A DNA stretch of 64,000 nt from Rubripirellula reticaptiva. Its GTDB lineage: Bacteria; Planctomycetota; Planctomycetia; Pirellulales; Pirellulaceae. The notes under the pieces are model-generated. The model ran no database searches. It was not told where the DNA came from and worked only from the letters and a program-made list of their open reading frames with translations. The stretch is from assembly GCF_007860175.1 (NCBI RefSeq), contig NZ_SJPX01000001.1:1364001-1428000 (forward strand), in the 5' to 3' direction. The first letter of the stretch is position 1, and every line of letters starts with the position of its first letter. This document shows, one piece after another, positions 49,912 to 63,435 of the stretch. Position numbers and translations under genes: made by a program.

Positions 49912-52900
49912 CTACTTCGAAACGGTTTCGTCAAGGTTCAGCAGCGTGCTGGCCAGAATCGTCCAAGCAGCCGCGTTCGCGTCGGACTGGCCTACCAACT
50001 TGGTCGATAGATCCGGGTTTCGATCGTAGTATGCGGTTGTGTCTGTCAGCAGCGTCAGCATTTCGTCGACTTCGCCGTCGGTCGGCAATCTGGCAGTCAC
50101 GGTTTCAAAGGTCCAGCGGATTCGCTGGACGTCGCTATCGATTTCAGGTTCATCAAGGGCACGGCGTGCCAGCAGCTTGGCCGACTCGAGATACTGAACC
50201 TCGTTCATCAGCAACAGTGCCTGCAGCGGCGTGTTGGTCCGCTCGCGGCGAGCCGTGCAAGATTCGCGGCTTGGTGCATCCAAAGTTGCCATCTGTGGCG
50301 GCGCGCTGGTTCGTTTCCAAAACACATAAACGCTGCGGCGATAAACCTTGTCACCTTCATCGGCAACGAACTTGACGGTGTTGCTGCCCGAATATCCGAC
50401 TGCTTCCCACAGCCCAGCCGGTTGCGGCGGTTTCACACTGGGGCCACCCTCGGAATCGACCAGCACGCCAGCCAGCGCGAGCGACTGATCTCGCAGTACT
50501 TCCGCATCCAAACGGTGTCGCGGGCCGCGTGCCAGCAAGCGGTTGTTCGGATCAATTCGCAGCATATCATCGCTGACCCTTGCCGAACGTTGGTAGGCAT
50601 TGCTCATCACTAACGACTTCATCAATCGCTTGACATCCCAGCCGTGTGATTGGAAATCTGCGGCCAACCAATTCAACAATTCAGGATGACTTGGTGGTTG
50701 TCCCTGGCTACCAAAATCCTCGCTTGTTTTTACCAAGCCAGTACCAAAGACTTGTTGCCAAAAACGATTCACGGCAACCCGCGCGGTCAGCGGATGATTC
50801 GGCGCGGTCAACCACATCGCCAGCCCCAGCCGATCATTGGGAGCATCTTTTGGCAGCGGTGGCAAGAACGACGGCGTCGCCCGTTCGACGGCGTCGCCCG
50901 GTTGGTCATATTGTCCGCGTATTAGCAAGTGAGCCTGCCGAGGTTCGGCAAGTTCTTTCCAAACCAACGTGGTTGGGATTTCTGACTCTAGCTTTTCTTT
51001 TGCAATGCGTGTTCCCTTTCCCTGGTCGATCAGTGCGAGCCAATCGGGGTGTAAACAGTAGACCTTTCGGAAGTATTTTCGCAGCGACGACTTGACGTTA
51101 TCACTTCGCGATTCGGCGGGCGTCTTTACCAGTTGACGCAATTTTTCGGGGATGCTGATCGCGGGCGAACGGAATGCGTACGTCAGTGCTGAATCGCCCG
51201 AATGGTTGATCAGTTTGATATATAAATCGTTGGCACCTTTCTTTAGAGGCAGTTCGTATTCGTACTGCAACGGATTCAGTTTACCCGCGCCCTTGTGTCG
51301 ACCGATTTCTGTTTTGCCGAGGTAAACGATGTGTCCATCATCGGCGCCTAACAGCAGCGTGACGTTTTGATCCCTCGGGGCATCGATGGTCTGGTGCATG
51401 ACCAAAACGGACGACCGATCATTGATCGATGAAAGCTTGTTGACTTCGACCGGTGCCAAGTCCCCACGATGCTGCCAGCCATAGCGACGACCGTCGTGAT
51501 CAAAGACTTCGTCCGCTTTGAATTTTTTTTGCTGCGAGGCAAAGCTCTTGTTGTAGCCAGGATTCGTATTGTCGATCGAGAACGGACCCACGGTGTGGAC
51601 ATCGCCGAGTCGGACTTGTTGGTCCTTCGGGACCGCCGCGACTGAATCGCTGACCGACAATCGAATTTTGCGAAACTGGTGGCCGGCGTAAGTCGATTGG
51701 TACTTCAACTGAACACGAATTTTCGCGTCTTCACCTTCGGCTACAAGTGACGGGATGCTAAACCAAGCGGATCGACCACCGACTTGTTCATGTCCCGCTG
51801 CGGCCCAACCCGTCGTTTCATCGACCTTGCCGTCAAATGCGTTGCCGATCGCGAACTGATCGCCAGATTGTTCGATGTCGGCGAATCCGCCCGCAATCGG
51901 GACTTCCATCCACTGTCCAGGCGTGCTGGAATCCGTCGTTTCGATGGTGATTTCGGACAGTACGACGTTGCCATTTGACGAGGCACCGACGCGGTTTTTA
52001 GGATTGTCGGCCAGTGCTTCTAAGTAAAGGGTTTGCCACTGGATGCCACTTGGGATGGACGCGGTAACCGTGGTCACGTCCTTGTTCGAAGCGTCGCCGA
52101 CCAACTCAATTGCGCCGTCATCGAGGACCTTCATCGATGCTTTTGCATCGGACGTGACCTCGCTCGGGTGCAGTACTTGGAAACGCGGTTCGGAATCGTT
52201 GCCGAGCGATTGTTCCCAGGCTTGTTGAGCGGCGTCCACACTTGCGATTGGGCTTTCCTTTTCTGCGGCCAAACTGATTAACAATGTTGAGTATTCGTCT
52301 AACATCGCAGTTTGTTCGGCGCTCGGGACCCGAATCACTGGCGCATGGTCCTTCACATTCCCATCGAGAGCTTTGCCATCAAGGCTGTTGAAGTACGCGA
52401 GCAGTGAGTAATAGTCGCGCTGAGAAATGGGATCAAATTTGTGATCGTGGCAAACGGCACAGCCTGTCGTCAGCCCCAAAAAGATGGTGCCAAACGCATC
52501 GGTGCGGTCGATGCAGTTGCGGGCGAACACTTCGTCATAAATGGAACCACCTTCGTTGGTGGAAACATTCAGACGATTGAAGCCACTGGCAACGCGATCT
52601 TGGTCCGTTCCATCAGGCAGCAAGTCGCCGGCCAACTGTCGTGTGATGAATTCATCGAAGGGCATGTTTTCGTTAAATGCACTGATCACCCAATCACGAT
52701 ACGGCCACATTTCACGAAAATTGTCCAAGTGCAATCCATGCGTGTCGGCATACCTGACCAAGTCCAGCCAGTAGCGGCCAACGTGTTGACCGAAGTGATG
52801 CGACTGCAGCAATTGATCGACAAGCTGCGAATAGGCGTCGGGTGAGGTATCGTTTTCAAACGCCGTGATTTGCTCACGCGTTGGCGGCAATCCGACAAGG

Positions 52901-53454
52901 TCTAAGCAGACTCGTCGGAGCAACGTTCGTCGATCGGCTCGGGAGTTTAGAGTCAGGCCGGCATCGATTGCCCCTTGGTCGATGAACCAGTCGATTTGGC
53001 GATGAGGCTCGGCGGCACCATCGGATCCACTGGCGTCTTCGCTAGTACTTGATATTTCGACACTTGAAATTTCCGGTGCGATGAATGCCCAGTGCGATTG
53101 GAATTTTCCGCCACCCTCGATCCAACTGCGCAGTTTTGACTTTTGATCCTCCGTCAGCGGTTTGTGAAAGTCTGGTGGCGGCATCATTTCGTCAACATCG
53201 CTTGAGGCGACCCGCATCAGCAGGATGCTGGCTTCGACATCGTCCGCGTCCACAACGGTGGCAAGTCCATCGGCGGTGTCGAGTCGTAGGTCGGCTGCAC
53301 GTTCGGCTTCATCGGGACCGTGGCACGCGAAGCAGTGGTCCGACAAAATGGGGCGAATGTCGCGACCAAAGTCGACTTCGATCGCGTTGACCGTTGAAAC
53401 GGACAACACGACCATGGAAATAGCCGCGCATAGGAATCGAGCGAGCATAAACAT
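49912..53454 (-). CDS. large exported cytochrome/DUF1549/DUF1553 protein with inserted carbohydrate-binding-like region
   Basis: The 1180-residue protein begins with a signal peptide (about 1-24). A cytochrome C domain has the heme motif CFACHGP and [12 protein letters not shown]1549 follows (about 150-380), ending with [18 protein letters not shown]. The middle (about 420-800) is a strand-rich insert absent from the 930-residue homologue ([55 protein letters not shown]); its pattern suggests galactose-binding or PA14-type folds. DUF1553 ends the protein ([22 protein letters not shown] and [13 protein letters not shown]). The start could also be the ATG at 53448. Confidence 0.9.
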
Positions 53455-53552
53455 CAACTGCGCGAAACGGAGGAAGGTGGGTGCATCGGGAGGCAGGAAA
53501 GGCGTGAGGGGAAATACGCCTCCGGTCATCTTAGTTTAACGAACCGATCTGT

Positions 53553-53588: not shown

Positions 53589-53723
53589 CTAGTGGGATCC
53601 GGTCAAATCGTTATCTTGGGAACTACTGCGACGATTATCTGGCCCCAATATTCCGTCGAACTTCCGTGATCAGGGCTTTGAACTACTCTCTGACGTCAAC
53701 TTTTGCCACGAGTCATCTTTGTC

Positions 53724-55523
53724 ATGCCGCGACTTCCCGACGACCAAATCATTGAATCGATCCGTCTATACCGCGATTCTTTAAAGCAAACTCAAGCTTT
53801 GTACATTGAAAGTGGCCAACTGATCCGCGGTTCTTACGGCTGGCTCTCAGGTGGCGAAGACGCAGATGCGGCTTCCATCGCCAGCCAAATGGATGATCTG
53901 CATCAGGGATTCTTGATGAAAGTATTTGCTGGTGTCGTGCCTGGTGCCAGCGGCCGGACGATGGAGCAACGGCAGCTTGGCCGTGTTCTGCTGGAACACA
54001 TTTGGGGCAAGTCGGTGATGGGCAATCAGTTGCACGAAGCGGTGGATTGGTTGCTGGAAGCATCGAAGGATTTTCGCTGGTCCGATCTGGTTCGCCCCTT
54101 TGCCGAAATTCCTGCCATCCGGGATCGATGGGGCGAATTGGAAACCCTGGCGATGCGGCAAGCCAATTTGTTGGCCTCGGTTGATGGCAGTATTGACTTA
54201 GCCGAAAACGAAAGCATTGCCGAATTGCAGAACCAGTTTGACACAATGCAAGGTGCTGCACCGGAAACGCTTGCCAACGAAGTCGATACGAATAACGCTC
54301 GTGATGCGATAAGTTGGTTGCGAGATGAAGCAAAGCGACTTCGCGATGGCGTCAGCGTGACCGCGGCGGAAAAGCCAACACCGGTGGCCGGCCCCGGTGG
54401 ATCCGGCAGTCGCGGTTCCGATGGCAGCAGTAAAGCCGCGCCGCCGGTGGCGTCAAAGGCGGTCGCAACACCAGACGATCGGACGCCCGAGGAACGGTTG
54501 GCCGAAGCTCGCGCAAAGCTCAATCGCTTGGTTGGACTTGATGGCATCAAAGACCAGATCGAAACGCTGACGAATTTTTTGAAGATGGAACGTCTGCGCG
54601 AAGAGCAAGGGTTGCCCACCACGCGGCCAAGCTTGCACATGTCGTTCGTCGGCAATCCGGGCACCGGTAAGACCACCGTAGCTCGTATTGTTGCCGATAT
54701 TTATGGGGCGCTTGGCATCCTAGAGAAAGGCCACCTCGTCGAAACGGATCGCAGCGGATTGGTTGCCGAATACGCCGGTCAAACCGGGCCAAAGACGAAC
54801 GCGAAAGTTGATGAAGCCCTTGATGGAGTGCTCTTCATCGACGAAGCCTACACATTGATTGACGAAAATGGCCAAGATCAATATGGGCGCGAAGCCGTGC
54901 AGACGCTGTTGAAGCGAATGGAAGATCAACGCGAGCGATTGGTCGTCATCTTGGCCGGGTACCCGGTCGAAATGCAAAAGATGATTCGTAGCAACCCGGG
55001 ACTGAGTTCGCGAGTCGGGACGACGATGACGTTCGACGATTATTCGCCGCAAGACCTGTGCCGAATTTTTGAACTGATCGCTGCGAAGGCGAAATACACG
55101 CTGCCAACTCAATCGCGACGTCGGTTGTTGCGTGGGTTCACGTACCTCTATATCGGACGCGATCGTCACTTTGGAAATGGTCGTTGTTCGCGGAACAGTT
55201 TTGAACGCAGTGTTCGGTTGTTAGCAAATCGGTTGTCGACTCTGGCCGACATCGATCGTGATCTGTTAACGACCTTGCAACCCGAGGATATCGAAGTGGC
55301 CGGAGTCACCAACGCGCACTTGCAAGCGATGGCTGACGAGCCGGGCCAAGTCCGTGTGAAATGCAAACACTGTGAAGCGGCCGAAGTCATCGACGACGAA
55401 CTGTTGGGAACCGAAGTGGAATGCAAGTCATGTAGCAAACCGTTCGACGCCGACTGGGGCGACCCTGTGGCGGCGATGGTTGGTCCACCGGATGAGGAAG
55501 TCGCTGCTGCACCGAGTGAATAA
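53724..55523 (+). CDS. CbxX/CfqX-type AAA ATPase, EccA-like, with C-terminal zinc ribbon
   Basis: From the ATG at 53724 (TTG at 53703 is in-frame too) the product is 599 residues. The N-terminal 200 residues are helical, followed by a Gly/Ser/Pro-rich linker. The AAA module (about 250-490) has Walker A GNPGTGKTT (310-318), Walker B LFIDEAY (370-376) and sensor/Arg regions typical of CbxX/SpoVK/EccA. The C-terminus has a small zinc ribbon (CKHC and CKSC). Such ATPases remodel protein complexes; EccA does so for ESX substrates. It converges on the FtsK-type gene with 18 bp between stops. Confidence 0.85.
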   Translation: MPRLPDDQIIESIRLYRDSLKQTQALYIESGQLIRGSYGWLSGGEDADAASIASQMDDLHQGFLMKVFAGVVPGASGRTMEQRQLGRVLLEHIWGKSVMGNQLHEAVDWLLEASKDFRWSDLVRPFAEIPAIRDRWGELETLAMRQANLLASVDGSIDLAENESIAELQNQFDTMQGAAPETLANEVDTNNARDAISWLRDEAKRLRDGVSVTAAEKPTPVAGPGGSGSRGSDGSSKAAPPVASKAVATPDDRTPEERLAEARAKLNRLVGLDGIKDQIETLTNFLKMERLREEQGLPTTRPSLHMSFVGNPGTGKTTVARIVADIYGALGILEKGHLVETDRSGLVAEYAGQTGPKTNAKVDEALDGVLFIDEAYTLIDENGQDQYGREAVQTLLKRMEDQRERLVVILAGYPVEMQKMIRSNPGLSSRVGTTMTFDDYSPQDLCRIFELIAAKAKYTLPTQSRRRLLRGFTYLYIGRDRHFGNGRCSRNSFERSVRLLANRLSTLADIDRDLLTTLQPEDIEVAGVTNAHLQAMADEPGQVRVKCKHCEAAEVIDDELLGTEVECKSCSKPFDADWGDPVAAMVGPPDEEVAAAPSE

Positions 55524-55541
55524 CGGAGATTTGAAGAACAG

Positions 55542-58500
55542 CTATTCAGACTCTCGCCACGAATTCACCGCTGCTGCTTGGGGCAAGTCGCATTGGCGGA
55601 ACTTGGTGATTCGTCCGTCAGAATCGTCGTACAACAACATCGTTGCTGCGGACAATTCCGCGGCGATCGGCGAATCAATCAGTAATGATGAATCGGAAGG
55701 GTTCATGGGGCCAAGGATCCGCAGTTCCAAGTCATGTTGGCTGCCTCGCGGTAGCCAGCGTGAAAATGTTTCGGCGGAACCGCAAACGACTACCGTGAAC
55801 ACGCCGGCGGCGGGACCATCGCGAAGCAAACTCTGAAGGGCTGAAGATCCGCTTGCCGCTCCGGCCGAGTCGAGCGAGAAGTTGAACGACTCGTCTTGTC
55901 GCAGGTCTCGGAACCGTTCCAGCGGATCGACGACCACAACGATCGGCGGTGCATCGTGCGATTCGTCGCCTCGCGCCGTCACCAATTCGCTGAGCCGAAC
56001 GATTTCGGATTCGCTATCGCGAGTCTTGACGCAATGGACCTTCGCGCCGGATGCTTCGATCCATGGTGCCAGTGATTCACTGTCGCCGACACGTGATCCG
56101 TCCAAGTAGACGATTTCCAAATCCTTTCGCGATTTGGCGAACCCAGATAGTGTCGTCGCCAATATGGCTGCTCGTGAATCCGGCGGAGTGATCAGTAGTA
56201 CGTTTCGTCCCGTGTTTCGGGCGAGCGACAGGCCAATCGGTGGGCCGATTTCAACCGATTCGCCTAGCAGGCCTGTGATCGTTCCTGGGGTTGATTCCTT
56301 GATGGCTGAGTTTGCCAAAATCGGCGACCATCGGCACGGACGGTTGCCTTCGAAAATGACCGGTGGCGACATCTGCGACTGGTAGGATTCATCGCGGGCC
56401 GTGATCGAACTTAGCATCTCGCGGTGACGTTGTGACGAGAGCCACGCAACTTGGAAAGGCTGGTTGCCTTCGACCAGACCGCCGGCGTTGTTGTAGATTG
56501 CTTCGCCGGGACGACTGATCAAACGGGCCGCCGTGTTGTCGTCCGACAAGATCAAAGCTGCGTCAGATTCGCTGCACTGCATGGCAATACGAACGGCCAT
56601 TTGACCCAAAGTGGCGCGAGGCAATGAATATGCGCCTGCCAATGATTGACTGCTAAGCACGACGTGCATGCCGAACGAACGGCCTTGCCGAACCAAGCGG
56701 TCCAACAGCATGGCGCAGTCGCCCGCGATTCGATCGTCACGTACGAACAGTTCTTGGAATTCATCGATCACCAGCATCAATCGTGGCATCGATTGGCCAC
56801 TGGCGGTGCGGTAATCGCCTAGTTCCTGAACGCCGCTTGCGCGAAACTTTTCGCCTCGTTGTTGCAGTTCGTTGTCAAGTCGCTGCAGCACGCTGCGTCC
56901 AAACTCTCGTTCGCTTTCGATTCCGATCACACGTGCGTGCGGCAAACCGATATCGGCGTACGGTTTGAACTCGACGCCTTTCTTAAAGTCCAGCAAATAG
57001 TATTGAAGTTCATCAGGGCGATAACGATACGCGCCCGACGTGATGATCGAATGCAGCAGCGTGCTTTTTCCCGAACCGGTCTTACCGGCGATCAGCACGT
57101 GTTGACGGACGCCTTCCCCCAGTTCGATGCTAAGGGATCGGTTAGCACCTTGGCTGCCCACAGCAATTGAGATCTCGTCGGATGTGGATCCTTTGCCTTC
57201 GATGATGCCAGCCAAAACCGAATCGAGTGGAATCTCGACATGCGAAGCGGCGACCGCGGCCGTACCAATCTTTTCGACCAGAGCCGGGCGAATCGCTGTC
57301 GACGGCAGCGGTGCGGGGATGAAGGGAAGGTCTTCGAGCCCATCTTGCAGCAATGTCCATTTGCCGTCGGCATCAACTTTCAGCGACATTACTTTGTCGC
57401 CGCTGGGGATTGGCATGTCCGAAGGCCAAGGCTTGTCCTGATCGCAAATTAGGAGCGTGAAAATGCCGCATCGCAGTCCGCTCTCAATCAACGCACGCAG
57501 GTGTCCGTATCCTTCACGCGATAGGCTGTCGGGGAAACCCACCGCGGCGATTGCTCGGTACGGCTCGGCCATGGATCCGGCCAATTCGTTGTAGTCTTCG
57601 ATCCGTTCGAATCGATCCCGTAAGCTCGACTGTAAAACATCTTCAACGTGATGAGCCAGTTCGGCTAATCGTGCCTCGATCTTTTGGTCGGTTGTCCAAA
57701 CTCGGTGGCTGACGATGGCGGGGTCATGGTCGGTCAATGCCATGAAGCTGGTGAAGTGCTGGCCACGTCCGAGCGGATCGATCAGCGTCAATTTAGCTCG
57801 CGATGGCGGCGCACTGCACAACAGTCGCCAAAGAAATTGGTGTGCTAATTCGAGGGCTGCATCCATCGATCCCGGTGCCGCGTGGATCACCAAACTGCTG
57901 TGGATACGGCGGTGCAACACAACGGGCAATTCGCTTGGGATTTCTGCGTCGGCCAGCATTTCGGGCAGTGATTCACCCGAGTTGGCAACGGCGACCTCGG
58001 GGGTGCCGTTGTTGTTTGGGGAGTGGTTGTTTGGGTTCTCGGGCGGTGGCGTCGACAGCAGCTTTCGTAGTTGGCCATCAACTCGCAGAGTGCCGATCGG
58101 GACAAAATCGATTGATGGTGACGTATCGCCGGGATCTGAATTTAGCACGGTATCCCAGTCCGGCGCTTTTTGTTTGGCCGCTTGCTCGGTCAACGAAATT
58201 CGCTTTAGCCCATGTCCGACACCGGCTTTCAAGCGAACGCCGAGGTGCTGCATTTCTGCAAATCGGGCGGCTGCGTTAGATTCGCGTCGCTGCTGGGTTG
58301 ATTGTTCATTTGATGACAATCGGCTGGTGATGTCCTTGGCCACCAACTCTGCTCTGGATCGCATCATGTTGGTGACGATCGCAGATTGCTTGCTGTATTC
58401 TGCGTTTGTGGATTCGATTGTTTGGAGTAGTTTTTGGCGAAGTGCGGTTTGCTCTTCCGCGAGTCGTTGCTCGAGTGCAATGAGTTGCTCGCCTTTCCAT

Positions 58501-59492
58501 CGCTTCGCTGCTTGCAAGTGAGCATCACGGCGTGAAACCAAATCACTGGATGCATCGGCGGCCGTCTTGTTTGCAATCTTTCGTCCCGCCGCCGCACATT
58601 CTTCCGCGGCCAATCGGATGCGTTCTGCACGCGGGTACAGTTGTCTTGTCATTCGCTTCAGAGGCCAAAGCAGAATCAAGTATGCAGCAAATCCCAGCAA
58701 ACCGGCTGGCAAGACACCTGCGGCCATCCACAACCACGGCGGGTGCGGGGCCACAAAGTAGGCCACGATCGCCCACAGAACAATGAAGATCGCGACACCG
58801 ATCGGAAGGTAGAACTTGTCAACGATTTGCGAAGCCACGCCGGTCTGCATTTCATCGACGACCTTTGTCGATTGACGTGTCAAAGCGGCGATCGAATCGA
58901 CCGTCATTTGAACGGACTCGGGCGCTGCGACTCGCATGTCTTCGTCGGGATCCGTCGTCGGTTGGACCTCGGGCAATCGATCGAGTCGCCGGATCGTTAA
59001 CGCCCGCGCCCACTCTAGATTGTCGTGAATCTTGGTCAACGAATCGTCGATCCGCTTGATCTCCTTGCGTTTGACTTGGCCGGGTTGGTTCTTGCGATTT
59101 TCGTATTGCTGCAGCACCGCTTGACGCCGCGCATCGACTTTTCGTTCGATGCCTTTTGTTTCGTCGGCCTGTTTGCGACGAAAGACGACCGCTAAGCGGT
59201 TCAAATCCATCCGATTGGCAACTGCCTTGGACTCGTAGGCGAATGTCAGTTCCTCTTCGGACTGGTCCCACTTGGAGAGCATTTCGCGACGAATTTTCCG
59301 GCACCGTTCCATTTCGGCGGCGCGTCCCGATGTCAAATCGGTTTCTTCGGAATCGCGTTGTTGGGCGTGCTTGGCCAGCAGGTGCTGTCGTTGCTGAAGG
59401 GATGAAGTGATTCGTTCCGATAAGCCGTCGAGTAGTCTTTTTTGGCGGCGAACGTCGAAGAGGCCGGCGGGGCGAACAGTGGTATCTTTCAT
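55542..59492 (-). CDS. two-TM FtsK/SpoIIIE-type ATPase with coiled coils, EccC-like
   Basis: The 1316-residue protein has long charged coiled-coil segments (about 15-165 and 285-445) on both sides of two membrane helices (228-249 and 252-276). Three ATPase-like regions follow. The first (about 525-725) keeps the fold but lacks a P-loop. The second (about 760-1010) is canonical, with GKTGSGKST at 803-811 and Walker B RLMLVIDEF at 904-912. The third (about 1075-1300) is degenerate (RNVLLITPPDSRAAIL). Two membrane helices plus three tandem ATPase regions is the plan of EccC/YukB of type VII secretion; FtsK proper has one ATPase domain and a gamma domain, not seen here. It is the last gene of a leftward operon with the WXG-like gene. 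Confidence 0.85.
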   Translation of the reverse strand: MKDTTVRPAGLFDVRRQKRLLDGLSERITSSLQQRQHLLAKHAQQRDSEETDLTSGRAAEMERCRKIRREMLSKWDQSEEELTFAYESKAVANRMDLNRLAVVFRRKQADETKGIERKVDARRQAVLQQYENRKNQPGQVKRKEIKRIDDSLTKIHDNLEWARALTIRRLDRLPEVQPTTDPDEDMRVAAPESVQMTVDSIAALTRQSTKVVDEMQTGVASQIVDKFYLPIGVAIFIVLWAIVAYFVAPHPPWLWMAAGVLPAGLLGFAAYLILLWPLKRMTRQLYPRAERIRLAAEECAAAGRKIANKTAADASSDLVSRRDAHLQAAKRWKGEQLIALEQRLAEEQTALRQKLLQTIESTNAEYSKQSAIVTNMMRSRAELVAKDITSRLSSNEQSTQQRRESNAAARFAEMQHLGVRLKAGVGHGLKRISLTEQAAKQKAPDWDTVLNSDPGDTSPSIDFVPIGTLRVDGQLRKLLSTPPPENPNNHSPNNNGTPEVAVANSGESLPEMLADAEIPSELPVVLHRRIHSSLVIHAAPGSMDAALELAHQFLWRLLCSAPPSRAKLTLIDPLGRGQHFTSFMALTDHDPAIVSHRVWTTDQKIEARLAELAHHVEDVLQSSLRDRFERIEDYNELAGSMAEPYRAIAAVGFPDSLSREGYGHLRALIESGLRCGIFTLLICDQDKPWPSDMPIPSGDKVMSLKVDADGKWTLLQDGLEDLPFIPAPLPSTAIRPALVEKIGTAAVAASHVEIPLDSVLAGIIEGKGSTSDEISIAVGSQGANRSLSIELGEGVRQHVLIAGKTGSGKSTLLHSIITSGAYRYRPDELQYYLLDFKKGVEFKPYADIGLPHARVIGIESEREFGRSVLQRLDNELQQRGEKFRASGVQELGDYRTASGQSMPRLMLVIDEFQELFVRDDRIAGDCAMLLDRLVRQGRSFGMHVVLSSQSLAGAYSLPRATLGQMAVRIAMQCSESDAALILSDDNTAARLISRPGEAIYNNAGGLVEGNQPFQVAWLSSQRHREMLSSITARDESYQSQMSPPVIFEGNRPCRWSPILANSAIKESTPGTITGLLGESVEIGPPIGLSLARNTGRNVLLITPPDSRAAILATTLSGFAKSRKDLEIVYLDGSRVGDSESLAPWIEASGAKVHCVKTRDSESEIVRLSELVTARGDESHDAPPIVVVVDPLERFRDLRQDESFNFSLDSAGAASGSSALQSLLRDGPAAGVFTVVVCGSAETFSRWLPRGSQHDLELRILGPMNPSDSSLLIDSPIAAELSAATMLLYDDSDGRITKFRQCDLPQAAAVNSWRESE

Positions 59493-59596
59493 GATGAGCA
59501 GCCAATCGAAGAGCAAGCGTCGACGACGAGGATGGCGTCGCACTGGCCTACTATTCTATCATCCGCGGTCGCCCGCAATGACTATCGGAGCCAACG

Positions 59597-59851
59597 TCAA
59601 TCTGACTTATTGCCAGTCATTTCGTCATCCAAAGCTCGTTCGGCCTTGCGTACAGCGTCGCTGAAGTCTCGCAGCGCCGCCGAGAACCGATTCAGGCTCG
59701 GTCCCAGGCTGGTCAGGTTTTCTTGTTCAAACTTGGCTCGCCGCTCGTCCTGCCACGTTTCGCGGACATCGGACCAGAGCCGAGCGAATTCGACGAAGTC
59801 TCGCTGCAAACGGTTTTCGCAATCGGTCACTCGTCCTAGATTGAAAGCCAT
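59597..59851 (-). CDS. small helical-hairpin protein resembling WXG100 effectors
   Basis: The 84-residue protein is predicted as two helices (about 8-30 and 50-75). The turn contains W33-Q34-D35 followed six residues later by F41 (TWQDERRAKF), the layout of W-x-G ... F/Y in WXG100 proteins with Asp replacing Gly. The second helix has heptad-like hydrophobic positions (SLNRFSAALRDFSDAVRKAERAL). There is no signal peptide. The gene lies three bases after the HEAT gene stop and 104 bp before the FtsK-type gene, so it sits where a type VII substrate or adaptor would. The family match is by eye only. Confidence 0.7.
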   Translation of the reverse strand: MAFNLGRVTDCENRLQRDFVEFARLWSDVRETWQDERRAKFEQENLTSLGPSLNRFSAALRDFSDAVRKAERALDDEMTGNKSD

Positions 59852-59854
59852 CTG

Positions 59855-61399
59855 CTAGCTCGTTTCGTCGACGGAAGTCGGGTTAAAGGTCCGCAGCATT
59901 TTTCGACCTTTATAAAGATTAAATAGATCGCCGGGCGTGATCGGACGCAGTCGTCCGCCAACGGGATAGTCGATCGTTTCGAGTCCATCGGTCACCACGG
60001 CGCACGGTTTGTTGTCTCGCATCGCCATGAATACGCCCGCTTTTTCTTCTAGAAAGAAACCCAACAACGCAGGCTTCAGCGATTCATAGCCTGTCTGTTC
60101 GAGGTGCTTTTGAAACGCGTTCATGAAACGTATTTGCACTTCATTGAGATGTTCGGCCGCGACAGTGAAAATCTCGGGATGCTCGGCGTGCCAACCAGCA
60201 TAGATCGCATAGATGTCAGCCATCGCAAAGTCGGCGACGTCAGCCGACATCGCAAATGTGACCGGTCCGGTCATGCCAACATTCGAATAGATGCGTTCAC
60301 CAAAGTTGTATTCAAAGCGTACCAAGTGAATATCAACGGGATCGGTAAAGCTTGGCCACAGCATCCGCTTGGTATCGACGACTTCGACGCTGGTTGGAGG
60401 CACGCCCATCTGTTGTGGTTGGCTTAGCCAGAGCGACAATTCGGATTCGGCCGTCGAGGTGTCGCTGCGATATTGTTCTTCGACGCGATTGCCCAGCCCA
60501 AGTTCATCGGCATAGTGGATCGCACGAAGCCGCGCGGTTGGATCTTTGGTCAGTTCTATCAGGCGGGCCTTGCCGTCCGAGTCGCCCAAACGAGCCAACG
60601 CACCGGCTGCTTCGCATTGCACGCGGCGATGTTTTAGATCGAGTGCTTGGTGCAGCTTTCCGATCGAGCTTTCTTGGCCAAGCATTCCGACCGTGTCGCA
60701 TAGCGAAACCGCAAGCGCTACCGCTTCGCCCAATCGGTTTTGAACGGTGTCGACATCGTCTCCGAATGTGTGTGGGTCTTCCTCGAAGCGGGCGAGTCGG
60801 CCACTGATTTCGCCAAGCAGCAAGTTCAGTGTTTCGATGCGATCGGTCGCCGGATGAACGGCCACCCGTTGTTTGCGAAAGAGGTAGTTCGTCAGATCCA
60901 AAATCGGTGACGCCAGTGACGGGTGCTGGATCGCACCGAGCAGTTCGGGATAGATGGCATCGGTCGGCCAGTCATCGTTTTGCATCAACGGGCTAAGTAC
61001 CTGAGCCGCTTCGATCCACTTTTCGGGCGGCGATAATTGCAGCATGCCCATTAGGCGTGCCAGCGACAGTTGGCTGCGGATCGTCGCCAACAGGTGCAAC
61101 AGCAGATATCGGTTGGGCGTGCCTACCGGCAGCGTCTTTTCAATGACCTCGATCTCGTCGATATTCAGGCTCGCGATCGTCTCTTGCCCGGCTTGCAACA
61201 TCACCGTGTGAAGGACTCGCAGAATACCGCCGACAATCGCCGCATCGGATTTTCCGATGATTTCGGCGTTTGCGGCAAGCTCGGCGAGCAGCGTGGGGCC
61301 GTGGTCGATGGCCGATTCGGCCAGTTCACGTAGCCGCCATCCAGCCGCGACGGGGTCTGCCTGGTCACCCAAAAGTTGGTCGAGAGATTCTTCAAACAC
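59855..61399 (-). CDS. HEAT-repeat protein with unknown C-terminal domain
   Basis: The 514-residue protein is helical for about the first 330 residues, with HEAT/ARM-type units (HRRVQCEAAGALARLGDSDGKARLIELTKDPTARLRAIHYADELGLG). The C-terminal 170 residues form an alpha/beta domain I do not recognise (FTDPVDIHLVRFEYNFG, SNVGMTGPVTFAMSADVADF, KPALLGFFLEEKAGVFMAMRDNKPCAVVTDG). There is no signal peptide or membrane helix. It is the first gene of the leftward operon with the WXG-like and FtsK-type genes, three bases before the WXG-like start, so a chaperone or scaffold role in that system is likely. Confidence 0.75.
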   Translation of the reverse strand: MFEESLDQLLGDQADPVAAGWRLRELAESAIDHGPTLLAELAANAEIIGKSDAAIVGGILRVLHTVMLQAGQETIASLNIDEIEVIEKTLPVGTPNRYLLLHLLATIRSQLSLARLMGMLQLSPPEKWIEAAQVLSPLMQNDDWPTDAIYPELLGAIQHPSLASPILDLTNYLFRKQRVAVHPATDRIETLNLLLGEISGRLARFEEDPHTFGDDVDTVQNRLGEAVALAVSLCDTVGMLGQESSIGKLHQALDLKHRRVQCEAAGALARLGDSDGKARLIELTKDPTARLRAIHYADELGLGNRVEEQYRSDTSTAESELSLWLSQPQQMGVPPTSVEVVDTKRMLWPSFTDPVDIHLVRFEYNFGERIYSNVGMTGPVTFAMSADVADFAMADIYAIYAGWHAEHPEIFTVAAEHLNEVQIRFMNAFQKHLEQTGYESLKPALLGFFLEEKAGVFMAMRDNKPCAVVTDGLETIDYPVGGRLRPITPGDLFNLYKGRKMLRTFNPTSVDETS

Positions 61400-61661: not shown

Positions 61662-62096
61662 ATGGTCTGGATCACTCGCCTCGCTCTGATTGCTTATTTG
61701 GTTGGCGGCTGGCTTTTGCCCGCGTCGCACTTCCATGCGCATTCGGTGGCGGGGTGTGGCAGCCATGCTCATTCAGATGCCGGTCCAGCCTGCGGGCACA
61801 GTCACGACCACTCGGGACATCACTTTCACGCCAATACGGTCGATGATGCCGAACCGGGCTCTTTCCAACAGTTTGCCGGCGGTGCGATCGACCAGCGTGC
61901 GGCATCTGATCGTTGCCACGATGGTTTGTGTGCGATTTGTGCTGCCCGATCTCTGTCATCAACTGCGGTGCTGGCTTGGCAACTGCCGTCGTCGTTAGAT
62001 TTGTCGTGCCGCGAAGTCTGGATTGCAGATGACTGGATTGCGTCGTCCGACGAAGCCGGCGGCAATTGGACCAGGGGACCACCTGAGCAGGCATAA
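61662..62096 (+). CDS. exported His-rich, possibly metal-binding protein
   Basis: The 144-residue protein starts with a signal peptide or single helix ([20 protein letters not shown]). The next 40 residues are rich in His ([17 protein letters not shown] and [14 protein letters not shown]), which would bind Zn, Ni, Co or Cu. The C-terminal part has a [11 protein letters not shown] Cys set. It resembles small exported proteins found near metal transporters, but no transporter gene is adjacent. The possible -10 box is only 10 bp before the ATG, so the mRNA could be nearly leaderless. Confidence 0.65.
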
Positions 62097-62151
62097 CGTT
62101 CATTTGTTCGTTTTGCTTTTATTCATATCTCAGGTTCGGATTTCGTTTCCC

Positions 62152-63435
62152 ATGTTTGGTTTTTCTATGCGCGGCTATTGCTGCGCGGACGCTGCTTCGC
62201 GTCCGGTGTACAGTTCATCTCGTACTCGATTCAGTCGTACCGGCTTCACTTTGGTTGAACTGTTGGTGGTGATCGCCATCATTGGTGTGTTGGTCGGGTT
62301 GTTGTTGCCGGCTGTTCAAGCAGCTCGCGAGGCTGCCCGGCGAATGAGCTGCAGTAACAACTTCAAACAGATTGGACTGTCGCTGCACAACTATCATGCG
62401 GCTTACCGGCAATTGCCCCGGCACCTCGGTGGTACTTGGACCAACGGCAACTCGCCCGCCAACATGAACAATCAAATGTCGCTGTCGTTCTTGGTCGGGA
62501 TTTCGCCGTTCATGGAACAGCAGGCTCTTTGGGAACAGATTTCAAATCCCAATCAACGGCGCGTTGATGGTGGAATCCAGTCACCCGCGTTCCCTGCCAT
62601 GGGACCATCGCCGTGGGTTGCGCAGTACGTGCCTTGGCAAACTGAGTTGCCAACGCTGCGTTGCCCGAGCGATCCCGGTGTCGGGTTGCCATCATTTGGA
62701 CGAACAAACTACGCCGCTTGCGTTGGTGATTCGATCGTCGCGATGAATACCGGGCCAACTCAGATCGTTAACTCAGTGTTAACCAATCCGACGCCGGTAT
62801 CCGTCGTCGCCGAATCGCAAGCGTCATGTCGTGGTGTATTCGTCGCCCGCCGAGATACGCGTTTCCGTGACATCTTGGACGGACTGTCTAACACGATCAT
62901 GTGTGGCGAAATTGCAACCGATGTGGGTGATCGCAATACTCGCACTATCGCGGCGATCGAGAATGGTACCGATACAATTCGCGACGAGCCCGACTACTGT
63001 TTTCACGACGGTTTGGTCAGCCCCAAGCGGCCTAAGTTTTGGTCGGATGGTTCCGACGGAGGCGTCTCGCCAACGTTGGCAGGGGCCGACCAGGGCCGAG
63101 GTTATCGATGGGCGCATGGTGGAACGGTTTGGACGTCATTTAATACGATTTTGTCGCCAAACCGAGAATTGTGTTTAGGCGGCGCCGCTGGCGACGGAGT
63201 CAATTCTCCCGGTGTCGCATCGATCAGCAGTTACCACCAAGGCGGTGCACACGTCTTGATGTCCGATGGGGCGGTGAAATTCATCACTGACTCGATCGAA
63301 GCAGGCGACTTCGACACGCCCAACGTTCAGCTTGGTGGCACCGGTGGAGCCGCGCCCGGCAGTAAGAGCCCCTACGGACTTTGGGGAGCCTTGGGAACGC
63401 GAGCATCGGGCGAAGTGATCGGCGAAGAATTCTAA
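62152..63435 (+). CDS. DUF1559 prepilin-like protein
   Basis: The 427-residue protein starts with a type IV prepilin leader: after a basic stretch comes [35 protein letters not shown], with the conserved Gly before the cut site, Phe at +1 and Glu at +5. The rest is the DUF1559 domain, ending with the usual segment [19 protein letters not shown] and a Gly-rich tail. Such proteins are pseudopilins or surface fibres in planctomycetes, which encode many copies. ATG at 62167 is a possible alternative start. Confidence 0.92.

What the first reader, a model, noticed from the sequence alone, without database searches (positions are those of the whole stretch)
53724..61399. Candidate type VII (ESX)-like secretion locus in a planctomycete
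Seen: within 7.7 kb are an EccA-like CbxX/CfqX AAA ATPase, a 1316-residue two-TM ATPase with three tandem ATPase-like regions, an 84-residue helical hairpin with WXG100-like spacing, and a HEAT-repeat protein; three of them form one operon and the fourth converges on it. Known: ESX loci pair EccC-type ATPases with WXG100 proteins and EccA. Inference: the set works as an export or membrane remodelling system. EccB, EccD, EccE and MycP are absent here, so it is either minimal or completed elsewhere.
Basis: partly seen in the sequence, partly recalled or inferred. Interest (0 to 1): 0.75.

Follow-up and report, generated by a model that had tools for sequence, protein, structure and literature searches.

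The report
Planctomycete type VII-like export module
Two of the four genes picked out belong to a four-gene module of a Gram-negative phylum that resembles the type VII protein exporters of Gram-positive bacteria; the other two module genes lie elsewhere in the genome, and the supposed EccA gene is only a neighbour.

Summary
The window holds a HEAT-small protein-ATPase operon and a convergent AAA gene. The type VII reading is partly right.

The 1316-aa ATPase folds like EccC/EssC: a TM hairpin and three tandem RecA-like domains, only the middle one with a P-loop. The first 8 PDB fold matches are EccC/EssC. In a tree it is a third lineage, outside both EccC/EssC and FtsK. The 84-aa protein is modelled as a short WXG100-type hairpin with W-x-D, not W-x-G, at the bend.

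In many planctomycetes these two genes follow two more: a true WXG100 protein and a coiled-coil protein ("cc"). Here those sit together on another contig. ATPase and WXG100 occur in the same 24 of 199 phylum genomes and agree in 114 of 117 relatives. The set stays complete in 7 genomes where it is scattered.

The EccA-like gene adjoins the ATPase in none of the relatives' loci examined. The HEAT gene is a family-specific partner.

Four of five plasmid relatives sit beside WXG100 genes; one has a nuclease toxin plus immunity gene. I infer an exporter of a small helical complex; export is unproven. Prior art: a 2012 table footnote, and HP0062 of Helicobacter pylori.

The parts
55542..59543 (-). 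EccC-like three-domain FtsK/SpoIIIE ATPase with a TM hairpin (1333 aa from GTG; 1316 aa from ATG at 59492)
   Evidence: PF01580 3.1e-29; TIGR03924 EccCa 1.5e-30; AF2 model of the last 887 residues, pLDDT 86; first 8 fold matches EccC/EssC; separate clade in tree
58659..58832 (-). predicted transmembrane hairpin of the ATPase
   Evidence: hydropathy, residues 238-295; a TM-like segment in 22 of 26 ATPase ORFs or pieces scanned (of the 4 without, L043 and one L055 piece are N-terminally cut)
57216..57932 (-). degenerate N-terminal ATPase-like domain (no Walker motifs)
   Evidence: model residues 92-330; alignment
56436..57173 (-). middle ATPase domain with intact Walker motifs; P-loop GKTGSGKST at 57060-57086
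   Evidence: model residues 345-590; P-loop and DEF columns invariant or nearly so in 46 rows
55590..56363 (-). degenerate C-terminal ATPase-like domain
   Evidence: model residues 615-872; alignment
59597..59851 (-). 84-aa short WXG100-type hairpin ('mini')
   Evidence: AF2 model pLDDT 90.1; 19 of 20 Foldseek PDB rows are WXG100-type proteins, none with E<=0.001; W-x-D in 62 of 62 sequences including itself
59747..59755 (-). W-x-D motif at the bend (W33-Q-D35)
   Evidence: invariant in 58 of 58 aligned rows; lies between helices 5-32 and 36-83 in the model
59855..61399 (-). HEAT-repeat protein, lineage-specific operon partner
   Evidence: PF13646 1.9e-6; upstream of mini in 14 of 20 family loci; also in genomes without the system
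53703..55523 (+). CbxX/SpoVK/EccA-type AAA ATPase: a neighbour, judged NOT part of the system

Best explanation
It is half of a four-part, type VII-like protein-export module of the planctomycetes. Shown by computation: the parts are (1) a membrane ATPase with an EccC-like three-domain motor, (2) a true WXG100 protein with a W-x-D bend, (3) a coiled-coil protein, mostly 160-240 aa ('cc'), and (4) a short W-x-D hairpin ('mini'). They occur together genome by genome, as one operon wxg-cc-mini-ATPase in about half of the loci examined, and in this genome split into mini-ATPase (window) and wxg-cc (another contig). Inferred: wxg, mini and cc pack into a helical bundle, as LXG toxins do with Lap1 and Lap2; the ATPase binds this bundle, and its catalytic middle domain drives it, or cc alone, across the inner membrane. 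In one plasmid relative the gene at the cc position carries a nuclease toxin domain, so toxin delivery may be the ancestral job; in the planctomycete cc proteins seen no toxin domain was found and the module looks largely inherited with the lineage, so there it may have a house function.
For: ATPase and WXG100 in the same 24 of 199 phylum genomes; cc and mini in 23 of those 24 and in none of the others. Leaving out genomes that gave rows to the profiles: wxg in 9 of 9 further ATPase-positive and 0 of 175 negative genomes; cc and mini in 9 of 10. In 117 relatives: both 80, ATPase only 2, WXG100 only 1, neither 34. 7 of the 23 complete sets are scattered and still complete. Order wxg-cc-mini-ATPase in 13 of 25 loci and in 41 of 80 named loci. 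ATPase fold: best PDB match EccC 9.8e-29 over 991 columns, FtsK 8.3e-13 over 384. wxg profile: best PDB match HP0062 1.8e-12, then EsxB 1.3e-8. Mini: hairpin model, WXG100-type neighbours, hhalign to wxg 65%. Four of five plasmid relatives lie beside WXG100 proteins, one with a WHH nuclease (1.1e-11) and a SUKH-1 immunity gene (1.6e-6) between WXG100 and the ATPase.
Against: No secretion is shown by sequence. No membrane partner or outer-membrane part was found: YukD absent from this genome with a working control; EccB not found but its control was silent; EccD, EccE, MycP and others not searched. The T7SSa tail Yxxx[DE] is present in 0 of 15 and 0 of 44 wxg and 0 of 14 and 0 of 58 mini rows. 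Planctomycete cc is only weakly tied to the plasmid toxin N-termini (hhalign 45.6%, 19.4%, 0.6%), and the 76-77-aa genes before the Caballeronia and Helicobacter ATPases were not hit by the mini profile (Rhodococcus 73-aa protein 10%). The mini profile's best PDB rows are designed helical repeats, ahead of HP0062. The ATPase middle domain also matches defence ATPases (SspH 7.3e-23, mad8 4.2e-20), which were not in my tree. The system is patchy: 175 of 199 phylum genomes, family-mate G121 among them, gave no match. G107 has ATPase and WXG100 but no cc or mini.
Confidence: 0.65

Rival explanations
1. An intracellular conflict or defence complex: the ATPase, hairpins and coiled coil form a cytoplasmic sensor-effector assembly and export nothing.
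For: Middle domain matches SspH and mad8 of PADLOC; one plasmid relative lies beside CARF, vWA, PP2C and kinase genes, another beside TerD genes; patchy presence.
Against: TM-like segment in 22 of 26 ATPase ORFs or pieces; EccC-like overall fold; true WXG100 partner; kept across the genus (ATPase in 21 of 22, WXG100 in 22 of 22 genomes).
Confidence: 0.2
2. A mobile toxin-delivery T7SS, as the 2012 footnote suggests, that planctomycetes use for antagonism.
For: PMC3482391 footnote calls such systems, planctomycetes included, mobile; a plasmid relative has a toxin-immunity pair; MAGs named Lentisphaerae and Verrucomicrobiia nest among Phycisphaerae in the tree.
Against: Of 48 cc proteins 41 are 165-241 aa, which leaves little room for an extra domain; the other 7 share a GDSGW/QDSGW region and the two of these scanned are Imm33-like. 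The ATPase tree mostly follows the taxa named in record titles. One WXG100 and one cc match per positive genome (G239 has two WXG100).
Confidence: 0.1
3. A DNA translocase of the FtsK or conjugation-coupling kind.
For: Pfam FtsK_SpoIIIE; FtsK and TcpA among the fold matches from rank 9 down.
Against: FtsK clade separate (100/96), with this genome's other FtsK-type protein inside it; EccC better in fold and profile; the tie to a WXG100 gene.
Confidence: 0.04
4. One reading: EccA, EccC, WXG100 and HEAT as one minimal ESX system.
For: Adjacency in this genome.
Against: EccA-like gene adjacent in 0 of 20 and 0 of 80 other loci; it matches only the C-terminal half of the EccA model (positions 256-542 of 557; 249.3 bits, cut-off 466.65) and does not co-occur with the system.
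Confidence: 0.01

Closest known systems
Type VII secretion (ESX/Ess), T7SSa-T7SSj (PMC11217815: abstract, passages and section 15 seen)
   Same: EccC/EssC-like membrane ATPase plus WXG100 protein; small extra hairpins beside substrates, like Laps.
   Different: The abstract places them in Bacillota and Actinomycetota; here W-x-D instead of W-x-G, a separate ATPase clade, no YukD found, no Yxxx[DE] tail, scattered genes in some genomes, a Gram-negative phylum.
'Solo WXG domains' with a distinct YueA-like ATPase of three HerA/FtsK domains, only the middle one active (Zhang et al. 2012, PMC3482391, table footnote 6; passages seen)
   Same: Very likely the same thing: planctomycetes named, three domains, middle one active.
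   Different: The footnote calls them mobile and names neither cc nor mini; [quoted passage not shown]
Helicobacter pylori HP0062 (PDB 3fx7, 2gts; PMC3397514, passages seen)
   Same: Best solved match of the WXG100 part (1.8e-12); WRD at the bend and a gene cluster with an FtsK/SpoIIIE protein are stated in that paper.
   Different: Its ATPase was not available here for comparison; whether cc and mini partners exist there was not tested.
LXG toxin with Lap1 and Lap2 (PMC9600955, passages seen)
   Same: One long helical protein plus two small hairpins presented to a T7SS ATPase.
   Different: No toxin domain found on the planctomycete cc proteins examined; only 1 of 58 mini rows has [YF]xxx[DE] in its tail, so the Lap1 FxxxD motif is not kept.

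Membership tests
Type VII secretion system (definition in PMC4010439, passages: WXG100 substrate plus FtsK/SpoIIIE ATPase EccC/EssC) | WXG100 protein in the genome, tied to the ATPase | tested here: met
   PF06013 38.5 bits over cut-off 27.3 for the C2 protein; same 24 of 199 genomes as the ATPase
Type VII secretion system (definition in PMC4010439, passages: WXG100 substrate plus FtsK/SpoIIIE ATPase EccC/EssC) | EccC/EssC-type ATPase architecture (TM helices, tandem ATPase domains) | tested here: met
Type VII secretion system (definition in PMC4010439, passages: WXG100 substrate plus FtsK/SpoIIIE ATPase EccC/EssC) | ATPase groups with EccC/EssC by descent | tested here: not met
   clade of 18 rows (100/99) apart from EccC/EssC (5 rows, 93/96), with long branches; TIGR03924 106.6 bits, cut-off 509.15
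Type VII secretion system (definition in PMC4010439, passages: WXG100 substrate plus FtsK/SpoIIIE ATPase EccC/EssC) | ATPase-dependent export of WXG100 proteins | not testable with these tools
   needs experiment
T7SSa | EccB, EccD, EccE, MycP | tested here: inconclusive
   EccB profile silent in this genome and in all 14 control genomes; EccD, EccE, MycP not searched
T7SSa | Yxxx[DE] tail on an Esx protein | tested here: not met
   0 of 15 and 0 of 44 wxg, 0 of 14 and 0 of 58 mini rows
T7SSb and most of T7SSc-j | YukD/EsaB-like component | tested here: not met
   PF08817 no match in this genome; Bacillus subtilis control positive; other genomes not searched
WXG100 family (for the 84-aa protein) | profile score above cut-off | tested here: not met
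   15.4 of 27.3 bits; 16.1 of 44.85
WXG100 family (for the 84-aa protein) | two-helix hairpin with W at the bend | tested here: met
   by model; hhalign to the wxg profile 65%
WXG100 family (for the 84-aa protein) | W-x-G motif | tested here: not met
   W-x-D in 62 of 62
EccA (for the AAA gene) | full-length EccA match, linked to the system | tested here: not met
   249.3 of 466.65 bits, positions 256-542 only; linked in 0 of 20 and 0 of 80 other loci
FtsK DNA translocase | groups with FtsK | tested here: not met
'Solo WXG' T7SS of Zhang et al. 2012 | three HerA/FtsK domains, only the middle one active, with a solo WXG protein | tested here: met
'Solo WXG' T7SS of Zhang et al. 2012 | mobile | tested here: inconclusive
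   21 of 22 genus genomes carry the ATPase and the tree mostly follows named taxa, with exceptions; presence is patchy in the phylum; the five relatives outside planctomycetes that I fetched are on plasmids because that collection was searched; mobile elements were not looked for

The most novel reading that the evidence does not exclude
A third deep lineage of WXG100 exporters, found across planctomycetes, has lost its toxins and become a settled chromosomal system. Its wxg, mini and cc proteins form an LXG-Lap-like ternary complex that is itself the cargo or a conduit, and its genes can be scattered over the chromosome without loss, as expected of a house function in the unusual planctomycete envelope.
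Probability: 0.4. Interest if true: 0.75.

Novelty: new variant of a known kind. Interest (0 to 1): 0.56.

Why it matters
Type VII secretion is catalogued mainly as a Gram-positive machine. A conserved relative spread over Gram-negative planctomycetes, with a plasmid cousin that carries a nuclease toxin and an immunity gene, would help show what the minimal core of WXG100 export is (an ATPase plus three small helical proteins) and raises how it could work in a cell with an outer membrane. Named ATPase carriers include Rhodopirellula records, a genus with cultured members (recalled), so it should be testable.

Tried and rejected
EccA as a component: rejected. HEAT as a core component: rejected; 8 of 199 genomes have it, 3 of them with the system, and in two of those it lies far from the ATPase. 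FtsK or chromosome partition: rejected. A large WXG effector set in this genome: one PF06013 match only. cc as a WXG100 protein: hhalign 21.8% only. Known anti-phage systems: shared ATPase-domain matches only. Literature: ten answered searches. In the passages I looked at, the only earlier mention of planctomycetes with such an ATPase is the footnote in PMC3482391; listed papers that I did not open may hold more, and the library lacks most subscription papers. Sutcliffe 2011 (Antonie Van Leeuwenhoek 99:127) was seen only as a citation.

Limits: the wxg, cc and mini profiles were built from loci beside ATPases in the same 199 genomes, hence the independent counts. The genome search scores only some first-look candidates per genome (3 for the ATPase query), so absence is not absolute. 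The 20 loci and the 80 overlap: five contig pairs have equal lengths (L188/L206, L196/L209, L197/L208, L200/L216, L205/L226). That G000's genus is the Rubripirellula/Rhodopirellula group is inferred from those shared contigs. ORF starts are mechanical. MAG names (L252, L273, L283) may be wrong. My ORF caller lost the ATPase in L036, L039 and L040; they were recovered by a six-frame search. In one search most wxg genes are labelled 'mini' because both profiles hit them.
Full report
What is there. The window (G000:C1:1364001-1428000) holds, on the minus strand, a HEAT-repeat gene (59855-61399), a gene for an 84-aa protein (59597-59851) and a gene for a 1316-aa ATPase (55542-59492, or 59543 from an upstream GTG), and on the plus strand a convergent AAA ATPase gene (53703-55523).

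The ATPase. Its best families are FtsK_SpoIIIE (3.1e-29) and EccCa (1.5e-30, 106.6 bits, cut-off 509; FtsK model 25.9 bits). It has a hydrophobic hairpin at 238-295 and, by an AlphaFold2 model of the last 887 residues (46 rows, pLDDT 86.0, pTM 0.76), three tandem RecA-like domains. Only the middle one has a P-loop (GKTGSGKST) and Walker B (VIDEF); the outer two are degenerate. Against the PDB the first eight matches are EccC or EssC, the best 9.8e-29 over 991 columns (TM-score 0.38-0.39, so domains are placed differently); FtsK follows at 8.3e-13 over 384 columns. In a tree of the middle domain (29 rows) the 13 PVC-type proteins and five plasmid proteins form one clade (18 rows, 100/99), apart from EccC/EssC with two Streptomycetaceae relatives (5 rows, 93/96) and from FtsK (4 rows, 100/96). 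Several branches are long and the root is a midpoint, so I claim separateness, not branching order. SspH and mad8, which match this domain at 7.3e-23 and 4.2e-20, were not in the tree.

The 84-aa protein. It scores below the WXG100 cut-off (15.4 of 27.3 bits). Aligned with 57 relatives it is modelled as a hairpin (helices 5-32, 36-46, 49-83; pLDDT 90.1, pTM 0.66) with W33-x-D35 in the bend, invariant in 58 of 58 rows. Of 20 PDB fold matches 19 are WXG100-type proteins (HP0062, EsxA, EsxB, a streptococcal WXG100), but none reaches E 0.001, and by sequence the profile of 14 rows hits designed helical repeats (0.0012) ahead of HP0062 (0.0035). Against the wxg profile hhalign gives 65%. I call it 'mini'.

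The missing parts. In many other planctomycetes mini and the ATPase follow two more genes. One is a true WXG100 protein of about 90 aa (W[RQ]DQE..KF in most rows); its copy in this genome passes the Pfam cut-off (38.5 bits), and the family's best solved match is HP0062 (1.8e-12), ahead of EsxB (1.3e-8). The other, 'cc', is a coiled-coil-like protein; this genome's copy has no Pfam match at or above any cut-off. Both lie together on contig C2 near 600 kb. The order wxg-cc-mini-ATPase was seen in 13 of 25 ATPase loci and in 41 of 80 named loci. Of the other 39, 3 had another order, 4 cc-mini-ATPase, 8 HEAT-mini-ATPase, 5 mini-ATPase and 19 the ATPase alone, several of these with almost no upstream DNA held.

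They belong together. In 199 genomes spread over the phylum, the ATPase and WXG100 occur in the same 24; cc and mini in 23 of them, missing only in G107, and in none of the other 175. Fifteen of the 24 gave rows to the WXG100 profile, so the independent part is 9 of 9 positives and 0 of 175 negatives; for cc and mini, with 14 source genomes each, 9 of 10. Two identical sets of 24 in 199 have a hypergeometric chance of 1.8e-31, and Fisher's test on the relatives gives 6e-26, both without correction for relatedness. In 117 relatives: both 80, ATPase only 2 (G230, a 354-aa frame; G302, 73% complete), WXG100 only 1 (G210), neither 34. Linkage cannot explain this: of the 23 complete sets, 13 are clustered, 3 (G076, G124, G139) are split over contigs of fragmented assemblies and 7 are scattered (G000, G024, G087, G105, G137, G152, G194), in G105 at 0.23, 0.71, 1.94 and 2.66 Mb of one contig.

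What does not belong. The EccA-like gene was found beside the ATPase in 0 of 20 relatives' loci and 0 of 80 named loci (at least five contigs are in both sets, and downstream flank is short in some). At E<=1e-40 it occurs in 4 of 199 genomes, and the three others lack the system. The HEAT gene precedes mini in 14 of 20 loci of the window's own family but occurs in 8 of 199 genomes, 3 of them with the system. In that family the wxg gene directly follows a TPR-like gene (read by eye, no domain search) in 17 of 18 loci.

Spread. The ATPase tree (46 rows; bootstrap not fully settled) mostly groups by named taxon, with exceptions such as a Singulisphaera-named MAG among Phycisphaerae. 21 of 22 genus genomes carry the ATPase and 22 of 22 the WXG100. 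The window's group sits on a long branch (2.04).

Plasmid relatives. The nearest ATPases in the plasmid collection are from Rhodococcus AH-ZY2 (46%), Caballeronia (43%), Deinococcus (41%), R. pseudokoreensis (38%) and Helicobacter sp. NHP19-012 (37%); EccC/EssC rows are at 28-33%. Four of these five lie beside a protein hit by the wxg profile (Caballeronia 1.2e-24, Helicobacter 1.7e-16, Rhodococcus AH-ZY2 1e-10, Deinococcus 2e-7); R. pseudokoreensis gave none. In Helicobacter the gene after WXG100 has a C-terminal WHH nuclease domain (1.1e-11) and is followed by a SUKH-1 gene (1.6e-6), a 77-aa gene and the ATPase. The Rhodococcus and Caballeronia genes in a like position have coiled N-termini and a further C-terminal part that I read by eye as ParB-like or nuclease-like; Pfam found nothing there. 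Profile links from planctomycete cc to these N-termini are weak: 45.6% for Rhodococcus over 119 collinear columns, 19.4% for Caballeronia, 0.6% for Helicobacter. So 'cc is the LXG-like module' is an inference, mostly from gene position.

Mechanism. By analogy with LXG-Lap1-Lap2 (PMC9600955, passages) I propose that wxg, mini and cc form one helical complex recognised by the ATPase. The T7SSa tail Yxxx[DE] is absent; instead wxg ends in a kept Y-L (15 of 15) or Y-[LQ] (44 of 44) and cc has an invariant Tyr towards its end (14 of 14 rows; 30 of 30), a possible alternative signal. No channel or outer-membrane part was found; YukD was not found in this genome.

Prior art. [quoted passage not shown] PMC3397514 (passages) notes the ESAT-6-like features of HP0062, its WRD bend and an FtsK/SpoIIIE neighbour. 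PMC3935865 (passages) finds WXG100 proteins almost only in Actinobacteria and Firmicutes with a few in Chloroflexi; PMC4010439 (passages) notes sporadic ESX components beyond, including Proteobacteria. PMC11217815 (abstract, passages, section 15) lists T7SSa-j in Bacillota and Actinomycetota; a term search of its main text found no 'Planctomycet'. What I add is the four-part composition, the co-occurrence even when scattered, the exclusion of EccA, and the plasmid toxin cousin.

Verdict. A real, conserved module, a variant of type VII secretion rather than a new kind; the export function is likely but unproven.

Noticed in passing
L249:3768-4829, L275:3765-4745 and five more cc genes: 7 of 48 cc proteins are 327-367 aa and share a C-terminal GDSGW or QDSGW region; the two scanned match Imm33-like PF24719 (1.4e-14, 5.4e-11), an immunity-type domain fused to the module.
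   Followed up: partly
L287:4934-18369 (Caballeronia plasmid): The WXG100-ATPase cassette is preceded by a vWA gene and followed by CARF, vWA, PP2C, Ser/Thr kinase and AAA genes, as in regulated conflict systems.
   Followed up: no
L056:8851-10041 and L301-L317: A TPR-like gene lies directly upstream of wxg in 17 of 18 loci of the window's family, even where other neighbours differ; possible fifth component.
   Followed up: partly
G000:C4:869562-870632: A 53% identical paralogue (residues 230-586) of the window's EccA-like AAA protein in the same genome.
   Followed up: no
mini family, 62 sequences of window and L206-L285: 42 of 62 mini proteins have a Cys in the last 12 residues; the window's copy has none.
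   Followed up: no
window 62023-63435: Large prepilin-like gene ([33 protein letters not shown] near its start), by recall the DUF1559 type abundant in planctomycetes.
   Followed up: no
window 49912-53529: 1205-aa protein with a CxxCH motif near its start and, by recall, planctomycete DUF1549/DUF1553-type regions.
   Followed up: no
L273, L283, L252: ATPases in MAGs named Verrucomicrobiia, Lentisphaerae and Anaerolineae; the first two nest among Phycisphaerae in the 46-row tree: transfer or misnamed bins.
   Followed up: partly
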